Part shown: positions 44,729-55,633 of the stretch, piece by piece | Layout: each line of letters opens with the position of its first letter | Numbering within the stretch: the first letter of the stretch is position 1 | Assembly: GCF_003633755.1 (NCBI RefSeq) | Contig: NZ_RBIL01000002.1 | Span: forward strand, 1,178,001-1,242,000 | DNA: 64,000 nucleotides | Direction: 5' to 3' | Source of the DNA: Solirubrobacter pauli | GTDB taxonomy: Bacteria; Actinomycetota; Thermoleophilia; Solirubrobacterales; Solirubrobacteraceae | The notes under the pieces: model-generated | The model's database searches: none | What the model was told of the DNA's origin: nothing | Seen by the model: only the letters and a program-made list of their open reading frames with translations | Made by a program: the position numbers and the translations under genes

Positions 44729-45187
44729 ATGGCCAGCACCGAGGCGCCGCGATGGACGGCGTACGCGAACGAACGCCTCGCCGGTGAGGGCTACCGGCGC
44801 GGCGGCGGCCGTGCGGCCGTGATCGACCTGCTCGACGCGCAGGAGTGCGCCCTGTCGGCGCAGGAGATCGAGGACCGCCTTCGCGAAGGTGAGCGCCGGG
44901 TCGGCCGCGCGACGGTCTACCGCGTCCTCGACGAGCTGGTCGAGCTGCACCTGCTGTCCAAGGTCGAGATCGGCGACGGGGTCGCGCGCTTCGAGCGCGT
45001 GTTCCCCGAAGGCACGCATCATCACCACCACTTCGTGTGCCGCGACTGCGGGAGGCTGATCCCCTTCGAGGACGACGAGCTCGAGCGCGTCCTGCGGCGG
45101 ATCGCACGCCGCGAGGGCGTGGCCATGGACGGGCACGACGTGACGCTGCGCGGGCGCTGCCCCGACTGCGCGCCTGCCGCCGGCTAG
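44729..45187 (+). CDS. Fur-family metalloregulator (Fur/Zur-type)
   Basis: A 152-residue FUR-family repressor. The DNA-binding domain has GYRRGGGRAAVIDLLDAQECALSAQEIEDRLREGERRVGRATVYRVLDEL in segments, with the recognition helix before VYRVLDEL. The metal site reads GTHHHHHFVCRDCGRL (His97-101, Cys104, Cys107) with a second CPDC (144-147), so the structural Zn site is complete. It is close to the zinc-type transporter cluster at 50.8-54.1 kb and could be its Zur; proof would need a site match, and I see no clear Fur box. The TAACAT hexamer 8 nt upstream may make it leaderless. The stop shares CTAG with the convergent MocR gene. Confidence 0.9.
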   Translation: MASTEAPRWTAYANERLAGEGYRRGGGRAAVIDLLDAQECALSAQEIEDRLREGERRVGRATVYRVLDELVELHLLSKVEIGDGVARFERVFPEGTHHHHHFVCRDCGRLIPFEDDELERVLRRIARREGVAMDGHDVTLRGRCPDCAPAAG

Positions 45188-48523: not shown

Positions 48524-48538
48524 CCGACAACTTGTAGG
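48524..48538 (+). promoter_or_regulatory. BlaI-type box A (CCGACAA-C-TTGTAGG) with -10 TACGAT
   Basis: A 15-bp near-palindrome with one mismatch. It ends 2 bp before TACGAT (48541-48546), which is 6 nt from the ATG of the 52-residue peptide gene. The same arrangement recurs at the other sites. Confidence 0.7.
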
Positions 48539-48552
48539 AGTACGATGGTCGC

Positions 48553-48711
48553 ATGTGCGCGACCTGTGCCTTCACCGCCGCGGCGGGCGCCGCCGGCTTC
48601 CGCACCTGGCTGCAGACCCGCGGTTGGGCGTGGCTCACGCCGCGCCGGCTGCGCCGCCTCACGGTCGTCTCCGTGATCGCGGCGTTCGCCGGCATGACGA
48701 TCACGTTCTGA
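48553..48711 (+). CDS. 52-residue CxxC membrane peptide, leaderless, BlaI-box controlled
   Basis: A short gene that is easy to overlook. Its 52-residue product begins MCATCAFTAAAGAAGF, giving a CxxC pair at positions 2 and 5. A basic middle (WLTPRRLRRL) and a hydrophobic C-terminus (TVVSVIAAFAGMTITF) follow. The predicted topology is one membrane helix with an N-terminal thiol pair, suited to metal binding. Support comes from context: a TACGAT -10 lies 6 nt before the ATG, and a BlaI-type palindrome lies directly upstream. The same operator-promoter unit drives its convergent neighbour operon (a COG0701 permease) from the far end. The TGA stop abuts the TIGR03943 stop (TGATCA). I infer a small metal-handling or regulatory partner. 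Homologues need a search. Confidence 0.7.
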   Translation: MCATCAFTAAAGAAGFRTWLQTRGWAWLTPRRLRRLTVVSVIAAFAGMTITF

Positions 48712-49389
48712 TCAACTGTAGGGGTTGCTCGGCTGCGCGACCTCGGTCACGGCACTCGCCGAGACCTTCAGGTCGGTGCCGGGCGTCCCGATCAGCGTGC
48801 CCTTCACGTGGACCCACGTGTCGACCGGGAGGTTCGGCGCGCCGGTGACCTTGGCGCTGAACGCGTTCGCGTCCGCGGCGCAGCAGCCGACCATGAACCG
48901 GGACACCTCGAGCTCACCGTTGCCGTCGAGCTGCTTGGAGACGAACGCGACGAAGTCGACGGGCGTGCCCTCGCCGAGCTCGTTGTAGTCGGCGTACTCC
49001 TTGGACTCGGCCGCCCAGGCGATCTCGTACAGGCGGACGTCGCCCTCGATCGCGGTCTCCAGCGGTGCGGCGACGTTCTTGGTGCGCTTGTTCTCGACCG
49101 CGAGCGCGCCGAGCGACGGTGCCGGGACCATCAGCGTGAGCAGGATCGGCGCCACGAGCAATCCGTTCGCGCCGAGCTCACGCACGGACGGCGCACGCTT
49201 GTGCCCGCGGGCGCCCCACAGGTAGGCGAGCGCGACGAGCGGCAGCGTGAGCGCACCGAGCGACACCACCCACCACGTCTTCGGCCCGATGTACGTGGTC
49301 GCGCGCCCGCTCACCCAGAGATAGATGAAGAACACGCCCCACGCCGCGATCGCCACCGCTCGGAGCGTGCGCGTCCAGTCCCACCTCAT
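48712..49389 (-). CDS. TIGR03943/DUF1980-family putative permease subunit
   Basis: A 225-residue protein. Three hydrophobic segments occupy the first 100 residues (AIAAWGVFFIYLWV and two more), with a soluble C-terminal domain from about 110 that holds RFMVGCCAADA, a Cys-Cys pair conserved in this family. The Bacillus homologue pairs with a COG0701 permease next to zinc-regulated genes, and here the same pair occurs: its ATG overlaps the permease stop by 4 bp (ATGA). It is probably a subunit of an ion or metal translocating complex. The operon is transcribed from the box-B promoter. Its stop codon abuts that of the 52-residue peptide gene. Confidence 0.85.
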   Translation of the reverse strand: MRWDWTRTLRAVAIAAWGVFFIYLWVSGRATTYIGPKTWWVVSLGALTLPLVALAYLWGARGHKRAPSVRELGANGLLVAPILLTLMVPAPSLGALAVENKRTKNVAAPLETAIEGDVRLYEIAWAAESKEYADYNELGEGTPVDFVAFVSKQLDGNGELEVSRFMVGCCAADANAFSAKVTGAPNLPVDTWVHVKGTLIGTPGTDLKVSASAVTEVAQPSNPYS

Positions 49390-50732
49390 GAGATCACCGC
49401 CTGGAAGAGCATGGAGCCCGTCACCACGACGGGCACGATCACCAACGCCAACTTGACGACGAAGGCACGGCCGAAGGTGCCGCCGTACAGCAGCACCAGC
49501 TTCGTGTCGAGCACCGGCCCGGCCGCCAGGAACGCGAGCTGCGGACCGGGCGGGAACTGGATGAACGACACCGCGACGAAGGCGTCCGCCTCCGAGCACA
49601 AGGACAGGAAGAACGCCAGCACGATCATCAGCAGCGCGCCGACGAACGGGGACGTGAGCACTCCGGTGAAGACGCTCTGCGGCACGATCGTCTGCAGGGC
49701 GGCGGCGATCGCCGCGCCGAGCACGATGAACTTGCCCATCAGCAACAGGTCCGACATCAGGTGGTCGACGAACCCGCGCAGCTTGTTGTGGCTGTGGTCG
49801 TGCTCGTGGCTGGGCTCGGACTTCCTGGCGTGGGCGACCAGGTTGCCCCCGCCCCGGCGCGCGATCAGCGTGCCGGCGACGATCGCGAGCAGGAGGCCGA
49901 GGCCGAGCCGGCCGAGCACCATCTCGGTCGCGCCGCGCCCGGAGTAGGCGACGGCGGTCGAGAACAGCACGATCGGGTTGATCACCGGCGCCGCGAGCAT
50001 GAAGGCGATGCCGGCGGCGGGATGGACGCCACGCACGATCAGGCGTCGCGCGACGGGCACGGAGCCGCACTCGCATACAGGCATCGCCACGCCCGACAGC
50101 GCGACGGCCGGGATCTGCAGCGGGAGCGGGAGGCGCGCGATCCGCTCGAACCAGCGGGCCGGGACGAACACCTCGATCGCCGCGGAGACCGCCGCTCCCA
50201 GGAGCACGAACGGCAGCGCCTCCAGCGCGATCGACGTGCCGATGACGAGGAACGTCTGCATCCGCGCGGCCTCCCCGACTTCACCGACGCGGCCGGCGAC
50301 GATCACCAGCGCGAGCAGCGCCAGGATCGCGACGAGCAGCGGACGGCTGACCTTGCCGCCGTCCCGGGGGTGGGCGCGCAGGCCCCAGGCGCCGATCACC
50401 GCCAGCGACAGCAGGCCGGGCAGCGCCAGGCCGACGCGCTCGGAGTTGTCGGTGAACGACTGGGTGAGCGCGACGGTCGCGACCGTGCCGGCCACGAGCG
50501 CGGCGGTGAAGGCCGCGCCGCCGAGGCGTCCGAGCTTGCCCGCGGCGAACGCCAACACCAGGAACGGGAGCCAGCACCACAGGTGGAACGGGACGTAGCC
50601 CAGCGAGAAGCCGGTCGCGCGCCACGTGTCTTGCCACGCGTACGGCGACAGCACCGTGACGGCGCCCAGCAGCGCGATTCCCGGCGCGAGCACGCGTGCT
50701 CGCCGGCCGACCCTCATCGAAATCGTCCCCAT
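49386..50732 (-). CDS. COG0701 permease with CxC and His-rich loops
   Basis: A 448-residue polytopic protein of the COG0701 (UPF0718/ArsP-like) permease family. The hallmark is AMPVCECGSVPVARR with Cys220 and Cys222, repeated in kind by LSLCSEADAFVAVSF in the second half. A cytoplasmic loop SEPSHEHDHSHNK (His309-315) is an obvious metal-binding stretch. The partner subunit TIGR03943 is coupled by a 4-bp overlap. The start is the first ATG; a second ATG (50717) follows after five codons. The -10 TAGGCT (50744-50749, minus strand) leaves a leader of only a few bases. The BlaI-type box B lies 2 bp upstream of it. A metal-linked, repressible exporter or importer is likely. Confidence 0.88.
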   Translation of the reverse strand: MGTISMRVGRRARVLAPGIALLGAVTVLSPYAWQDTWRATGFSLGYVPFHLWCWLPFLVLAFAAGKLGRLGGAAFTAALVAGTVATVALTQSFTDNSERVGLALPGLLSLAVIGAWGLRAHPRDGGKVSRPLLVAILALLALVIVAGRVGEVGEAARMQTFLVIGTSIALEALPFVLLGAAVSAAIEVFVPARWFERIARLPLPLQIPAVALSGVAMPVCECGSVPVARRLIVRGVHPAAGIAFMLAAPVINPIVLFSTAVAYSGRGATEMVLGRLGLGLLLAIVAGTLIARRGGGNLVAHARKSEPSHEHDHSHNKLRGFVDHLMSDLLLMGKFIVLGAAIAAALQTIVPQSVFTGVLTSPFVGALLMIVLAFFLSLCSEADAFVAVSFIQFPPGPQLAFLAAGPVLDTKLVLLYGGTFGRAFVVKLALVIVPVVVTGSMLFQAVIS

Positions 50733-50766: not shown

Positions 50767-50877
50767 GGTCAAGGGCGAGACCCGTTAGCTGGACGTCTGT
50801 ACGGCCAAATTGGTGTTCCTAGCGGTTGTCGGACCAAATACTCGCGCCCACGTTCCCGAGTCGCTAGCCTAGTGGGA

Positions 50878-51702
50878 ATGAGTCTCATCGGTGTGTACGC
50901 CTTCGAGCAGCGGGCGCTGCTCGAGGTGCTGCTCGTGAGCGTGGGCGCCGGGCTGCTCGGCACGTGGATCGTGCTGCGCGGGCTGGCGTTCTACACGCAT
51001 GCGGTGGCGGCCGCCGCATTCCCTGGGCTGGTGCTCGCGGCCGGGCTGTCCTTCCCACCGATGGCGGGGGCGCTCGGCACGGGCGCGGTCGTCGCGGCGG
51101 GCGTCGGTGGGCTCTCGACGCGCCGGCGGGCGCGCTACGACGTGGCGACGGCGCTGGCCCTCGTCGGCGCGCTCGTGGTGGGCGTGGTGCTCGCCTCGAA
51201 CGTGTTCCACTCGGGCGCGCAGGTCGACTCGCTGCTGTTCGGCAGCCTGTTCGCGCTGACCGACACGGACCTCGTGTTGGGCGCCGTAGCGTCGATTCTT
51301 GCTTTGGCGGGGACGCTCGCGCTTGGCCCACGCTGGTTGGCGGTCGGGTTCGACGCGAGCGGCGCGAGGGCCGTCGGCGTGCGCTCGAAGGCGCCCGACC
51401 TCGTGTTGCTCGCGCTGGTCGGCTTCGCGTCCGTGGCGACGCTCGCCGCCGTCGGCGCCCTGCTCGCCACCGCGTTGCTCGTCGTCCCCGCGGCCACGGC
51501 GCGGCTGTGGACGAACCGGCTGCTCCCGTGGCAGTGCCTGAGCGTCGTGCTCGTGGCGCTGGAAGGGCTGGCCGGTGTGTGGCTCGCCGTGCGCACGAAC
51601 GCCCCGCCCGGGGCGACGGTGGCTGCGCTCGGTGGCGGCGTGTTCCTGTTGTCGGTCTTTGCTAATGAGATCTTGTCGCGAAATGGTCGTGAGAATGCGT
51701 AA
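50878..51702 (+). CDS. Metal (Zn/Mn-type) ABC transporter permease 1
   Basis: A 274-residue ABC-3 family (ZnuB/MntB-like) permease. It has about eight helices: VGAGLLGTWIVLRGLAFYTHAVAAAAFPGLVLA carries the family's cytoplasmic coupling region, and LLATALLVVPAATARLW lies near the C-terminus. The ATG lies 7 nt after TAGCCT, so the message is probably leaderless. It is the first gene of four: permease 1 - binding protein - ATPase - permease 2. Having two different permeases, one at each end, suggests a heterodimeric channel or recently duplicated specificity. No Zur or MntR box is evident in the short upstream region; an 11-bp palindrome ATGAGTCTCAT covers the start codon. Confidence 0.9.
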   Translation: MSLIGVYAFEQRALLEVLLVSVGAGLLGTWIVLRGLAFYTHAVAAAAFPGLVLAAGLSFPPMAGALGTGAVVAAGVGGLSTRRRARYDVATALALVGALVVGVVLASNVFHSGAQVDSLLFGSLFALTDTDLVLGAVASILALAGTLALGPRWLAVGFDASGARAVGVRSKAPDLVLLALVGFASVATLAAVGALLATALLVVPAATARLWTNRLLPWQCLSVVLVALEGLAGVWLAVRTNAPPGATVAALGGGVFLLSVFANEILSRNGRENA

Positions 51703-52681
51703 GTCAGTGATCCTGCTCCTCGCCCTGCCCCTGCTCGTCACCGCGTGTGGGGGCGAGGACGAAGGCGGCGCCCCGGCCCGTTCCGGCCCCGCCGAGCGTC
51801 CCGTCGTGGTCGCCACGACGACGCAGCTCGGGGACGTCGTCCGCCAGGTCGCGGGCGACGCCGCCGAGGTGCACCAGGTGCTGCAGGCCAACACCGATCC
51901 GCACGAGTACGAGCCGCGGCCGGACGACGTGAAGGCCGTGGCGGGCGCGAAGGTCGTCTTCGAGTCGGGCAACGCGCTCGACCACTGGATGGAGGAGCTG
52001 GTCGAGCAGGCGGGCGGCAGCCCCACCGAGGTGGAGATCGCGCCCGACCACACGCCGCACAAGGTCGAGGGCGAGCACCACCAGGAAGGCGACGACGAGC
52101 ACGGGCACGAGGAGTCCGAGCTCGACCCGCACTGGTGGCACGACCCGCGCAACGTCGAGGCGGCCATCCCGGTGATCGAGGCGCAGCTGGCCAAGGCGGC
52201 GCCCGCCAACGCGGCGACCTACAAGGCGAACGCCGCCGCCTACCTCGAGAAGGTGCAGACGCTCGACCGGGGCATCGAGACGTGCATGAGCGCCGTGCCG
52301 GCCGCCGAGCGCAAGCTGGTCACGAGCCACGACGCGTTCGGCTACTTCACCGCCCGCTACGGGATCACCGTCGTCGGCGCCGCGATCCCGTCGCAGTCGA
52401 CCGAGGCGCAGCCGTCCGCGGGCGAGATCGCCAAGCTCGCGGACGTCGTCCGCCGCGAAGGCGTGCGGGCGATCTTCCCGGAGAGCTCGATCAACCCACA
52501 GCTGGCCGAGACGCTGGCGCGCCAGACCGGCGCGAAGGCCGACTACGTCCTCTACGGCGACTCGCTCGGCCCCGAGGGCTCGCCCGGCGCGACCTACCTC
52601 GGCATGGAGGCCGCGAACGCCGACGCGATGGTCAAGGGCTTCACGGGAGGCGAGCGGGGATGCACGATCGCCGGCCTGTGA
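51695..52681 (+). CDS. Metal ABC transporter substrate-binding lipoprotein (ZnuA-like)
   Basis: A 328-residue cluster-9 metal-binding protein. The lipobox LVTAC carries the lipidated Cys18. Metal ligands expected in this family are visible: His70 in TDPHEYEP, His146/149 in the loop, a later His in TSHDAFGYF, and an acidic residue in FPESSI. The loop at about 119-149 is His/Glu/Asp-rich (DHTPHKVEGEHHQEGDDEHGHEE), the trait that marks zinc-type ZnuA proteins. The ATG at 51695 overlaps the permease stop; 51683 is an in-frame alternative. Zinc is the likely ion; manganese is possible. Confidence 0.92.
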   Translation: MRKSVILLLALPLLVTACGGEDEGGAPARSGPAERPVVVATTTQLGDVVRQVAGDAAEVHQVLQANTDPHEYEPRPDDVKAVAGAKVVFESGNALDHWMEELVEQAGGSPTEVEIAPDHTPHKVEGEHHQEGDDEHGHEESELDPHWWHDPRNVEAAIPVIEAQLAKAAPANAATYKANAAAYLEKVQTLDRGIETCMSAVPAAERKLVTSHDAFGYFTARYGITVVGAAIPSQSTEAQPSAGEIAKLADVVRREGVRAIFPESSINPQLAETLARQTGAKADYVLYGDSLGPEGSPGATYLGMEAANADAMVKGFTGGERGCTIAGL

Positions 52682-53328
52682 TCGCGGCGCGCGAGCTGGC
52701 CGTCGGCTATCCGGGCGGACCGGTCGTGCTGTCGGACCTCACCTTCGCGGTCGCGCCGGGTGAGCGCGTCGGCGTGCTCGGGCCCAACGGCGGCGGCAAG
52801 ACGACGCTGATGCGCGCGCTGCTGGGCGAGCTCGAGCCGCGCGCCGGCACGCTGGTCGTGGAAGGCCGGCCGGGCACCGTCCCGCAGACCGACCGCTCGC
52901 GGCTCGACTACCCCGTGTCCGCCCTGGACGTCGTCCTGATGGGGGCGCTGTCGCGCAGCCCGTGGTGGCGGCGCCCCGGCCGGTCCGAGCGCGCGGCCGC
53001 GTTGGCGGCGCTCGGGCGCGTCGGCCTGGCCGACCGCGCGAGGACGACCTTCGGCGAGCTGTCCGGCGGTCAGCGCCAGCGCGTCCTCGTCGCCCGCGCG
53101 CTGCTCCAGGACGCCGACATCGTGCTCTTCGACGAGCCGTTCACCGGGCTCGACGCGGCGAGCACCGACCGGCTGATGGCGCTGATCGACGACCTCGCCG
53201 GGGAAGGTCGCTGCGTGCTCGTCTCCACGCACGACGTCGCGCAGGCCGGCGCCTGGGATCACGTCCTGCGCGTCGATCGCCGGATGCTGGACTACGGCCC
53301 GCCCGAGCCGGTGCTCGTCCATGCTTGA
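52660..53328 (+). CDS. Metal ABC transporter ATPase (ZnuC-like)
   Basis: A 222-residue ABC ATPase. Walker A is GPNGGGKTT (41-49), the Q-loop is VPQTD (74-78), the signature is LSGGQRQR (134-141), Walker B is IVLFDEPF (154-161) and the H-loop is STHD (189-192). The ATG is preceded by a GGGAGGCGAGCGGGG ribosome region and overlaps the znuA-like gene by 22 bp. A GTG six codons later is an alternative. It energises the permease pair encoded on either side. The 3' end overlaps permease 2 by 8 bp, so the cluster is translationally coupled. Confidence 0.93.
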   Translation: MHDRRPVIAARELAVGYPGGPVVLSDLTFAVAPGERVGVLGPNGGGKTTLMRALLGELEPRAGTLVVEGRPGTVPQTDRSRLDYPVSALDVVLMGALSRSPWWRRPGRSERAAALAALGRVGLADRARTTFGELSGGQRQRVLVARALLQDADIVLFDEPFTGLDAASTDRLMALIDDLAGEGRCVLVSTHDVAQAGAWDHVLRVDRRMLDYGPPEPVLVHA

Positions 53329-54142
53329 CGCGCTGCTCGAGCCGTGGCACGAGCCGATCCTGCGCGAGGCGTTGCTCGAGGTCGTGTTCGTCGGGCTGGC
53401 GTGCGGCGCGCTCGGCGTCTGGGTGGTGCTCTACGGGCGCGCCTACAGCGCCGAGTCGCTCTCGCACGCGATGTTCCCGGGGCTCGTGGTGGCGGCGCTG
53501 ATCGGCGTGCCGGTCGTGCTCGGCGGCGCGGTCGGGCTGGTCGTCGCGGCGTTGGCGATCGCGGCCGCCGGGCGGGTGCGCACCCTCGGAGCCGACAACG
53601 CGGTGGCGGTGGTGATCACGAGCCTGCTGGGTCTCGGGACGCTCCTGGCGCTGTCGGCCGACTCGCCACCCGGCCTCGGCGCGCTGCTGTTCGGCGACGT
53701 CCTGGCGACGAGCCCTTCGGGCCTGCTGCTCGCGGGTGGGCTCGCCGCCCTGGTCCTCGCGGGATCGTGGGTGGCGTACCCGCGCCTGCTCGCGGTCGGC
53801 TTCGACCCGGGCAGCGCGCGGGCGCTGGGCCTGCGGGCGTACAGCGCGGAGGCCACGCTCGCCGTCCTGCTGACGCTCGCCGTGCTCGTGGGCGTGCAGG
53901 CGCTCGGGAACCTGTTGGTCGTGGCCGCGCTGATCGCGCCGGCCGTGGTCGCGGGCACGTTCACGCGGCGGGTGCCGCCGATGATCGTCGCGGCGTGCGC
54001 GGTGGGCGTGGCGTGCGGCGTCGGCGGGCTGTACCTCTCCTACTACGCGGGCGTGGCGGCGGGCGCGGCGATCGCCGGGCTGCTCGTGAGCGCGGCGGCG
54101 ACCGCCGCGGGGCTGAAGCAGATCCACACCGTCGCCGTCTAG
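53321..54142 (+). CDS. Metal ABC transporter permease 2
   Basis: A 273-residue ABC-3 permease, clearly related to permease 1 but distinct: VFVGLACGALGVWVVLYGRAYSAESLSHAMFPGLVVAAL corresponds to its coupling region, and QALGNLLVVAALIAPAVVAGTFTRRVPP to its C-terminal half. It overlaps the ATPase gene by 8 bp. It closes the four-gene operon. Downstream, 88 bp hold the box-C palindrome before the convergent M56 gene. It is the only convergent junction in this window with real intergenic space. Confidence 0.9.
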   Translation: MLDALLEPWHEPILREALLEVVFVGLACGALGVWVVLYGRAYSAESLSHAMFPGLVVAALIGVPVVLGGAVGLVVAALAIAAAGRVRTLGADNAVAVVITSLLGLGTLLALSADSPPGLGALLFGDVLATSPSGLLLAGGLAALVLAGSWVAYPRLLAVGFDPGSARALGLRAYSAEATLAVLLTLAVLVGVQALGNLLVVAALIAPAVVAGTFTRRVPPMIVAACAVGVACGVGGLYLSYYAGVAAGAAIAGLLVSAAATAAGLKQIHTVAV

Positions 54143-54230: not shown

Positions 54231-55178
54231 CTACACGACGTCTGAGGTCTGGCACGTGTGCGGCGTGCCGAGCCGGTGCTTCTCGTGGTAGCCCGCATGG
54301 GCGGCGAAGGGGAGTGCGAGCGCGGCCGTGACCACCAGCGCGGCCATCGCCGGGGCGAGCGCCACGAGGCCGGGGTGGGGGCGCGGAGCCTTGGCCCCCG
54401 GGTCGGCTTCGAGCAGGAGGCGGGCCCGCCGGGTGACGACGCCCCCGCCGAGGGAGAGCGCCGGTGCGGCGAACGCACCGCGGGCGGCCTTGCAGATCGC
54501 GCTCGCGAGCACGGCCGGCTCGTGGCGCTGGGCGAGCGCGTAGCTGTCCGCGTGGCGCTCGAGCGCGAACGTCAGCTCGCGCGCGGCCGCGGTCGTCCCC
54601 GGGAGGAACCGGCCGACCGCCCGCGCGAGCTCGCCCGCCACGAGCAGGTACCGGTGGCGGAGAGCGATGTGGCCGCGCTCGTGGTCGAGCCCCGCGCGCA
54701 GCTCGGCGTCGTCGAGCTCGACGAGCGCGCCCGCGGACACGACCACCTGCGGGCGGCGCAGGCCGGCCGCCGCGACGAGCAGCGCGCCGTCCGACAGGAC
54801 GACGCTGCCACCGGGGCCGGGGCCGATCGCGGTGTCACGGACGAGCCCGCGCACGCGCCGCGCGGCGACCACGAGCCCGTACGCGCTGACCAGCAGCGAG
54901 CCGGCGAGCGCCAGCGCGGGCAGAGCGAAGACGGCGTCCGTGACCGTGTGGCTGGACACCGCGCCGACGCACCACGCGCCGGACGGCTCGAGCGGACCGG
55001 CAACCGGCAGGTACACCTCGACCGCCACGGCCACCCCGACCGACGCGAGCGCACGCAGCAGCAGGGCGCTGAGCCAGATCGCGCCGACGAACCCCGCGGG
55101 CGCGCGATCCAGCCGGAGCACGTGCGGGAGCGCGATCGCGACCGCAAGCAGCCCGGCGGCGACGGCCAGCAGCGTCAC
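54231..55178 (-). CDS. M56 (BlaR1/MecR1-like) membrane metallopeptidase
   Basis: A 315-residue protein with several membrane segments and a zinc-peptidase motif HERGH (His166-Glu167-His170), then LERHADSYAL, which supplies the third ligand region. It lacks the extracellular penicillin-binding sensor of BlaR1, so it senses something else. Its GTG start overlaps the BlaI stop (GTGA), so the pair is coupled. In the BlaR1/BlaI model, the protease cleaves the repressor on signal. The C-terminus ends HTCQTSDVV. Given the neighbours, a metal-related signal is plausible. This is an inference. Confidence 0.88.
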   Translation of the reverse strand: MTLLAVAAGLLAVAIALPHVLRLDRAPAGFVGAIWLSALLLRALASVGVAVAVEVYLPVAGPLEPSGAWCVGAVSSHTVTDAVFALPALALAGSLLVSAYGLVVAARRVRGLVRDTAIGPGPGGSVVLSDGALLVAAAGLRRPQVVVSAGALVELDDAELRAGLDHERGHIALRHRYLLVAGELARAVGRFLPGTTAAARELTFALERHADSYALAQRHEPAVLASAICKAARGAFAAPALSLGGGVVTRRARLLLEADPGAKAPRPHPGLVALAPAMAALVVTAALALPFAAHAGYHEKHRLGTPHTCQTSDVV

Positions 55179-55555
55179 GCGCGCCGGTCGCGCGCCTGGC
55201 GCGCGAGCTCCTCGAGCTCGGACAGCTCCTCGGGGCGCAGGCCGCCGATGATGCTGGCCAGCGCCGCCTGGCGCGCGTCGCTCGAAGCGCCCGCCAGCGT
55301 GCGGCGGATGCTGCCGGACAGGTACTCGGCCTCGGTGACGCGCGGCCGGTACACGAACCCGCGACCTTCGCGCTTGCGCTCGAGCAAGCCGCGGGTCGCG
55401 AGCCGGTTGAGCACGGTCTGGACGGTGTTGTACGCGCCCTGGTAGCGCGGCGGGAGCTCCTCGCGCACCTGCTCGACCGTCCCCGAGCCGACACGCCACA
55501 GCGCGGCCATCACCTGGCTCTGCAGCTCACCTTGGATCGACTGGGAGTCAGCCAC
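55175..55555 (-). CDS. BlaI/MecI/CopY-family transcriptional repressor
   Basis: A 126-residue winged-helix repressor. The N-terminal DNA-binding part has LQSQVMAALWRVGSGTVEQVREELPP and AYNTVQTVLNRLATRGLLERKREGRGFVYRPRV, the pattern shared by BlaI, MecI and CopY, whose cleavage site lies just after this domain. The GTG is 6 nt after TATACT (minus strand), and a BlaI-type box lies 3 bp upstream of that, so it is leaderless and autoregulated. In known BlaI systems the box is a TACA-N(2)-TGTA-type palindrome, which fits the boxes here. Proposed targets are the permease operon, the 52-residue peptide, itself and the molybdoenzyme transcript. Confidence 0.92.
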   Translation of the reverse strand: MADSQSIQGELQSQVMAALWRVGSGTVEQVREELPPRYQGAYNTVQTVLNRLATRGLLERKREGRGFVYRPRVTEAEYLSGSIRRTLAGASSDARQAALASIIGGLRPEELSELEELARQARDRRA

Positions 55556-55570
55556 AGCACGAGTATAAGT

Positions 55571-55585
55571 CCTACGACCTGTAGA
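55571..55585 (-). promoter_or_regulatory. BlaI-type box D at the blaI promoter
   Basis: Plus strand CCTACGACCTGTAGA; on the minus strand it is followed after 3 bp by the TATACT -10 (55562-55567) of blaI. This is the direct link between the motif and the BlaI protein through autoregulation. Confidence 0.65.
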
Positions 55586-55618
55586 GCCAGGCCGAGATCC
55601 GTCCGCGCGGACTTGATA

Positions 55619-55633
55619 CCTACAAGTTGTAGG
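55619..55633 (+). promoter_or_regulatory. BlaI-type box E, perfect palindrome, with -10 TACTGT
   Basis: CCTACAA-G-TTGTAGG, perfect over 15 bp. It ends 2 bp before TACTGT (55636-55641), matching box A base for base through TTGTAGGAGTAC. Transcription should begin near 55648, giving a leader of about 146 nt to the molybdopterin oxidoreductase ATG. Confidence 0.72.

What the first reader, a model, noticed from the sequence alone, without database searches (positions are those of the whole stretch)
48553..48711. A 52-residue leaderless CxxC membrane peptide that short-ORF filters would miss
The reading frame has a Cys-x-x-Cys at its very N-terminus, a basic middle and one hydrophobic helix. It has a perfect leaderless promoter (TACGAT, 6 nt, ATG) behind a BlaI-type box, and its stop codon directly abuts the TIGR03943 gene. 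A metal-sensing or metal-delivery partner for the permease complex is plausible.
Basis: partly seen in the sequence, partly recalled or inferred. Interest (0 to 1): 0.72.

Follow-up and report, generated by a model that had tools for sequence, protein, structure and literature searches.

The report
Tiny zinc-linked CxxC membrane protein family
A 52-residue protein that gene finders could easily overlook belongs to an undescribed family found across one order of soil bacteria, always starting with a Cys-x-x-Cys motif and usually sitting beside the genes for zinc uptake, so it is probably a small membrane part of the cell's zinc supply line.

Summary
In detail: 48553-48711 (+) encodes a 52-residue Met-Cys-x-x-Cys membrane peptide, with a TACGAT hexamer 6 nt before the ATG. 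It is a real gene. I examined 65 homologous loci in 26 genera, all in the order Solirubrobacterales. CxxC is present in 65/65. A TANNNT hexamer lies 5-9 nt before the start in 45/65 and at no other offset. dN/dS is 0.24-0.29 among Solirubrobacter orthologues.

The peptide is convergent (tail-to-tail) with TIGR03943, not co-transcribed with it, and this adjacency was seen only in Solirubrobacter. Elsewhere the peptide sits next to YibE/F (12 genera), ZnuA (9), ZnuB-type permeases (6), COG0523/CobW GTPase (5) and Zur. A zinc gene lies within 1.5 kb in 44/65 loci and 20/26 genera. In several genomes a Zur-type box lies upstream. In the window the promoter instead carries a BlaI-type operator, shared with the ArsP-TIGR03943 and blaI promoters.

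No Pfam or NCBIfam family matches. Best reading: a small zinc-regulon membrane protein whose paired Cys bind Zn at the membrane and assist or gate a zinc permease. Zinc association is well supported; the mechanism is inferred.

The parts
48553..48711 (+). 52-codon CxxC membrane peptide gene, stop included
   Evidence: homologues; dN/dS 0.24-0.29
48541..48546 (+). -10 hexamer TACGAT, 6 nt before ATG (leaderless promoter)
   Evidence: sequence; offset conserved across the family
48526..48538 (+). BlaI-type operator GACAACTTGTAGG just upstream of the -10 element
   Evidence: same position (-27) in G135 and G138
48712..49389 (-). TIGR03943/DUF1980 protein, convergent with the peptide
49386..50732 (-). 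ArsP_1 permease (PF03773), probable operon with TIGR03943
50754..50766 (.). BlaI-type operator GACATCATGTAGG in the ArsP promoter
   Evidence: conserved in G135 and G138
50872..50888 (.). Zur-type box GTGGGAATGAGTCTCAT at the start of the znu operon
50878..51702 (+). ZnuB-type permease (ABC-3, PF00950)
51683..52681 (+). ZnuA zinc-binding protein (PF01297)
52660..53328 (+). ZnuC-type ABC ATPase
53321..54142 (+). second ZnuB-type permease (ABC-3)
54231..55175 (-). membrane metalloprotease (Pfam M48; BlaR1/M56-like partner of blaI by position)
   Evidence: start not determined
55175..55555 (-). BlaI/MecI-type repressor (PF03965)
55572..55584 (.). second, weaker BlaI-type site in the blaI promoter (CTACGACCTGTAG)
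55620..55632 (.). palindromic BlaI-type site CTACAAGTTGTAG upstream of blaI
44729..45187 (+). Fur-family regulator, Zur-like
   Evidence: PF01475; Zur assignment from its neighbours

Best explanation
The ORF is a real leaderless gene for a small inner-membrane protein of the zinc-uptake regulon of Solirubrobacterales. Its basic middle segment sits on the cytosolic side, a C-terminal helix crosses the membrane, and the N-terminal Cys-x-x-Cys lies at or in the membrane. Most likely it forms a homo-oligomeric or shared Zn(II) thiolate site next to a zinc permease (YibE/F, ZnuB or ArsP, depending on the lineage). There it either hands zinc on towards the COG0523 chaperone or signals zinc status to the permease. 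In Solirubrobacter its transcription is probably controlled by the neighbouring BlaI-type repressor together with ArsP-TIGR03943; in several other genera a Zur-type box is found upstream. Shown: the gene, the family, the leaderless arrangement, the CxxC, the zinc neighbourhood, and the boxes as sequence. Inferred: topology, zinc binding, partner, regulation and direction of effect.
For: Family and CxxC invariance; no charge between Met1 and the conserved Arg in 65/65, about 5 positive charges in the middle, Cys conserved only at positions 2 and 5. Zinc genes within 1.5 kb in 44/65 loci and 20/26 genera; ZnuA within 5 kb in 21 of 47 against 0.27 expected. Adjacent YibE/F in 12 genera, ZnuA in 9, COG0523 in 5, with family assignments by Pfam on representatives. 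Zur-type box: 26 sites with at most 2 mismatches in 0.88 Mb against 0 in four simulated stretches of half that length, nearly all upstream of zinc genes, four of them in the upstream region of an intact peptide gene. BlaI-type sites clustered in the window. Purifying selection.
Against: In six genera (g2, g4, g14, g27, g34, g38) no zinc gene was found in the fetched stretch of up to 8 kb either side. No single partner is constant: YibE/F is absent from 31 of the 58 genomes of the family that have the peptide. Most upstream regions show no Zur box; in the window itself none lies near the peptide, and where boxes occur a divergent zinc gene often shares them. No metal-binding, expression or interaction data exist. 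The predicted structure is low confidence (pLDDT 66.6), so the side on which the Cys pair lies is open.
Confidence: 0.5

Rival explanations
1. Specific subunit or metal-delivery partner of the TIGR03943-ArsP permease complex.
For: Tail-to-tail next to TIGR03943 in five Solirubrobacter genomes; the peptide promoter and the ArsP promoter carry the same BlaI-type operator in three of them.
Against: TIGR03943 is absent from nearly all other genomes of the family that have the peptide; outside the family only two loci (L070, L082) have a weakly similar gene, about 7 kb away; G136 has TIGR03943 but no detectable peptide; the genes are convergent, not an operon.
Confidence: 0.12
2. Thiol redox protein or membrane redox sensor (the CxxC forms a disulfide), with the zinc linkage indirect.
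For: CxxC is the classic redox motif; some members lie beside a CtaG-type gene (L057, L060) or beside genes that look like cytochrome c biogenesis/thioredoxin genes (L043, judged by eye).
Against: The xx residues are mostly MQ, VQ or AG, not those of thioredoxins; zinc genes are by far the commonest neighbours.
Confidence: 0.15
3. Leaderless short ORF acting in cis as an attenuator of a downstream gene, like the cysteine-responsive short ORFs of mycobacteria (from memory).
For: Leaderless, short, Cys codons at the start; in seven loci ZnuA follows on the same strand.
Against: In the window and in 13 YibE/F loci the downstream gene is convergent; the whole protein, including the C-terminal helix, is conserved with dN/dS below 1.
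Confidence: 0.05
4. Small hydrophobic toxin of a type I toxin-antitoxin pair.
For: Size and one hydrophobic helix.
Against: Broad distribution over an order, invariant CxxC, zinc neighbourhood. Antisense RNA was not searched for.
Confidence: 0.03

Closest known systems
Small membrane proteins that modulate transporters (AcrZ, KdpF, MgtS type; from memory)
   Same: About 50 residues, one clear membrane helix, encoded next to or with a transporter.
   Different: As far as I recall those lack an invariant N-terminal CxxC; no sequence relation was tested; this family is leaderless and zinc-linked.
Zur regulon components (ZnuABC, COG0523 GTPases; PMC2770081, PMC2823685)
   Same: Same gene neighbourhood, and Zur-type boxes in several genomes.
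   Different: No small CxxC membrane peptide turned up in the literature searches made here, which cover only the open papers held.
YibE/F (PF07907) and ArsP_1/TIGR03943 permeases
   Same: Recurrent direct neighbours, often tail-to-tail.
   Different: Large polytopic proteins, not homologues of the peptide; I found no paper that establishes their substrates.
Two-C(P)XCG zinc micro-proteins of Haloferax (PMC10716476)
   Same: Very small proteins with Cys pairs, one of them studied as a zinc binder.
   Different: Two Cys pairs; here there is one pair plus a membrane helix.

Membership tests
Zinc (Zur) regulon member | Genomic linkage to zinc uptake genes beyond chance | tested here: met
   44/65 loci within 1.5 kb; ZnuA within 5 kb in 21 of 47 against 0.27 expected
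Zinc (Zur) regulon member | Zur-type operator upstream of the gene | tested here: inconclusive
   Present in L034, L061, L063, L090 and the broken copy L056 (at most 2 mismatches), weaker in L062 and L127; absent near the peptide in the window
Zinc (Zur) regulon member | Induction on zinc limitation | not testable with these tools
   needs RNA or protein data
TIGR03943/ArsP complex partner | Co-occurrence and conserved adjacency with TIGR03943 | tested here: not met
   Adjacent only in Solirubrobacter; G136 lacks the peptide
BlaI-controlled gene | Operator shared with the blaI promoter and conserved in position | tested here: met
   GACANNNTGTAGG at -27 in G000, G135 and G138, also at ArsP; palindromic form at blaI. 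In G133/G134 the sites have diverged
BlaI-controlled gene | Canonical BlaI/CopY core TACANNTGTA | tested here: not met
   Spacing here is ACA-N3-TGT, one base longer than the core given in PMC7253601
BlaI-controlled gene | Repressor binding in vitro | not testable with these tools
   needs EMSA or footprint
Known protein family | Match over cut-off in Pfam or NCBIfam | tested here: not met
   No Pfam match for the window peptide; no significant NCBIfam match for six members
Leaderless gene | -10 hexamer about 6-9 nt before the start codon | tested here: met
   TANNNT 5-9 nt before the start in 45/65, none at other offsets

The most novel reading that the evidence does not exclude
An order-wide family of leaderless micro-proteins forms an intramembrane or membrane-surface Cys-pair zinc site that serves as an interchangeable accessory for different zinc permeases (YibE/F, ZnuB, ArsP-TIGR03943), with control of its gene switched from Zur to a BlaI-protease pair in Solirubrobacter.
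Probability: 0.3. Interest if true: 0.8.

Novelty: new variant of a known kind. Interest (0 to 1): 0.62.

Why it matters
It would add a small-protein component to bacterial zinc uptake, tie two poorly understood permease families (YibE/F and ArsP_1-TIGR03943) to zinc in this order, and give a clean test case of leaderless micro-proteins with a fixed promoter-to-start geometry. It also suggests a BlaI-protease pair that controls metal genes rather than beta-lactam resistance.

Tried and rejected
An alternative 43-codon ORF from ATG 48545, with an AGGAG in front, was rejected: the ATG is not kept in G135, G138 or G134. TIGR03943 as obligate partner was rejected. The actinobacterial Zur consensus as I recall it (TGAAAATGATTTTCA) has no close match upstream of the peptide genes; the order shows ATGAGAnTsAnTCTCAT instead. 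The first related-loci run failed because the alignment was too diverse; a narrower alignment gave 17 loci with organism names. A phylum-wide profile search found the family only in genomes of the window's own family; the class search had found it in four families of the order, with only weak partial hits outside it. My first frames for some window genes were wrong and gave no Pfam result or an error; corrected. Literature searches for YibE or TIGR03943 with zinc gave nothing useful.

Full report
Observation. The 52-codon ORF at 48553-48711 is present exactly as described: CxxC at residues 2-5, a basic middle, one clear C-terminal hydrophobic helix, TACGAT six nucleotides before ATG, and the box GACAACTTGTAGG just upstream. 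Its stop touches the stop of the TIGR03943/DUF1980 gene on the other strand, so the two genes converge; they cannot share a promoter.

Is it a gene? A protein search of 146 genomes of the same family gave strong matches in many genera, and a profile search of 399 genomes of the class found members in four families of the order. Named records include Solirubrobacter phytolaccae, Conexibacter arvalis and other Conexibacter, Solirubrobacteraceae MAGs and a Thermoleophilaceae MAG. A search spread over the phylum found nothing outside the window's own family, so the family looks restricted to this order at this sensitivity. In 65 loci from 26 genera the CxxC is at 2-5 in every one; starts are ATG (56) or GTG (9); lengths are 52-89 residues; a TANNNT hexamer lies 5-9 nt before the start in 45 loci and never elsewhere in the 0-29 nt range; a Shine-Dalgarno-like run is seen in only 6. 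dN/dS is 0.24-0.29 in three Solirubrobacter pairs and 0.04-0.69 in seven other pairs. Together these settle that it is a translated, mostly leaderless gene family.

Shape. No member has a charged residue between Met1 and the conserved Arg; the middle carries about five positive charges; Cys is conserved only at 2 and 5. By the positive-inside rule the middle is cytosolic and the C-terminus outside. The N-terminal stretch is only marginally hydrophobic. AlphaFold2 gives two helices, 2-22 and 30-51, at low confidence (pLDDT 66.6). Whether the Cys pair lies at the cytosolic surface or in a hairpin towards the outside is open.

Neighbours. Zinc genes dominate. ZnuA (PF01297), ABC-3 permeases, COG0523/CobW GTPase and YibE/F (PF07907) were confirmed with Pfam on representatives and mapped by similarity in all loci. 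A zinc gene is within 1.5 kb in 44 of 65 loci and 20 of 26 genera; ZnuA is within 5 kb in 21 of 47 loci against 0.27 expected. By genus, within 1.5 kb: YibE/F 12, ZnuA 9, permease 6, COG0523 5, Zur 3, TIGR03943/ArsP 1. I count YibE/F as a zinc gene because of the company it keeps here; its substrate is not established. YibE/F is most often convergent and downstream (13 loci), the slot that TIGR03943 fills in Solirubrobacter. Several of these YibE/F proteins end in His-rich tails. In the family the peptide and YibE/F co-occur (27 genomes with both; Fisher p = 1e-6, not corrected for phylogeny). Six genera showed no zinc gene within the fetched stretch.

Regulation. A palindrome ATGAGAnTsAnTCTCAT occurs 26 times with at most two mismatches in 0.88 Mb, against none in four first-order simulated stretches of half that length, nearly always upstream of znu, zur or COG0523 genes. 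Because it sits at these genes and is a Fur-type palindrome, I read it as the Zur box of the order. It lies upstream of the intact peptide gene in L034, L061, L063 and L090 (at most two mismatches), in L062 and L127 with three, and at the broken second copy in L056. In many of these the same box may serve a divergent zinc gene. The window has one at the znu operon (50872-50888) and none near the peptide. There the promoter instead has GACAACTTGTAGG; the same motif lies in the ArsP promoter and, as a palindrome, upstream of the blaI gene at the end of the cluster. About 11 places in the 7.1 Mb genome match KACANNNTGTAGG, no more than the reversed control, yet three of them lie within about 7 kb, each in a promoter of this cluster. 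The peptide and ArsP sites are at the same positions in G135 and G138. That this BlaI is the binder is an inference from the sites in its own promoter; the spacing differs from the TACANNTGTA core of the CopY/BlaI literature (PMC7253601).

Mechanism. The best reading is a small zinc-regulon membrane protein that binds Zn through its Cys pair, probably shared between subunits or with a permease, and assists or gates zinc passage. The zinc association is strong; binding, topology, partner and direction are inference. The varied permease neighbours argue for an accessory that can serve more than one transporter, or for a function in zinc handling at the membrane that does not need one fixed partner.

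Evolution. G133 and G134 carry a second, frame-broken copy beside a Zur box, COG0523 and a znu operon, while an intact copy lies next to TIGR03943. This fits an ancestral Zur-controlled position and a move to the BlaI-type promoter in Solirubrobacter, but the direction was not tested with a tree.

Verdict.

Noticed in passing
window 54231-55632: A blaI gene with a membrane metalloprotease gene behind it has two BlaI-type sites in its own promoter, and the same motif lies in promoters of metal genes nearby; it looks like a BlaI-protease pair that is not about beta-lactams.
   Followed up: partly
L056, around 8000: G133 and G134 hold a second, frame-broken copy of the peptide gene beside a Zur-type box, COG0523 and a znu operon.
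   Followed up: partly
YibE/F genes in L044, L048, L068, L070, L078: YibE/F proteins next to the peptide end in His-rich tails, which suggests metal handling by this poorly known family.
   Followed up: no
L052 and L055, -6.3 to -2.5 kb from the peptide: A second, diverged znuABC-like gene set lies on the other side of the peptide in G134 and G138.
   Followed up: no
L057 and L060: In some members of genus g19 the peptide follows a CtaG-type (PF09678) gene instead of zinc genes.
   Followed up: partly
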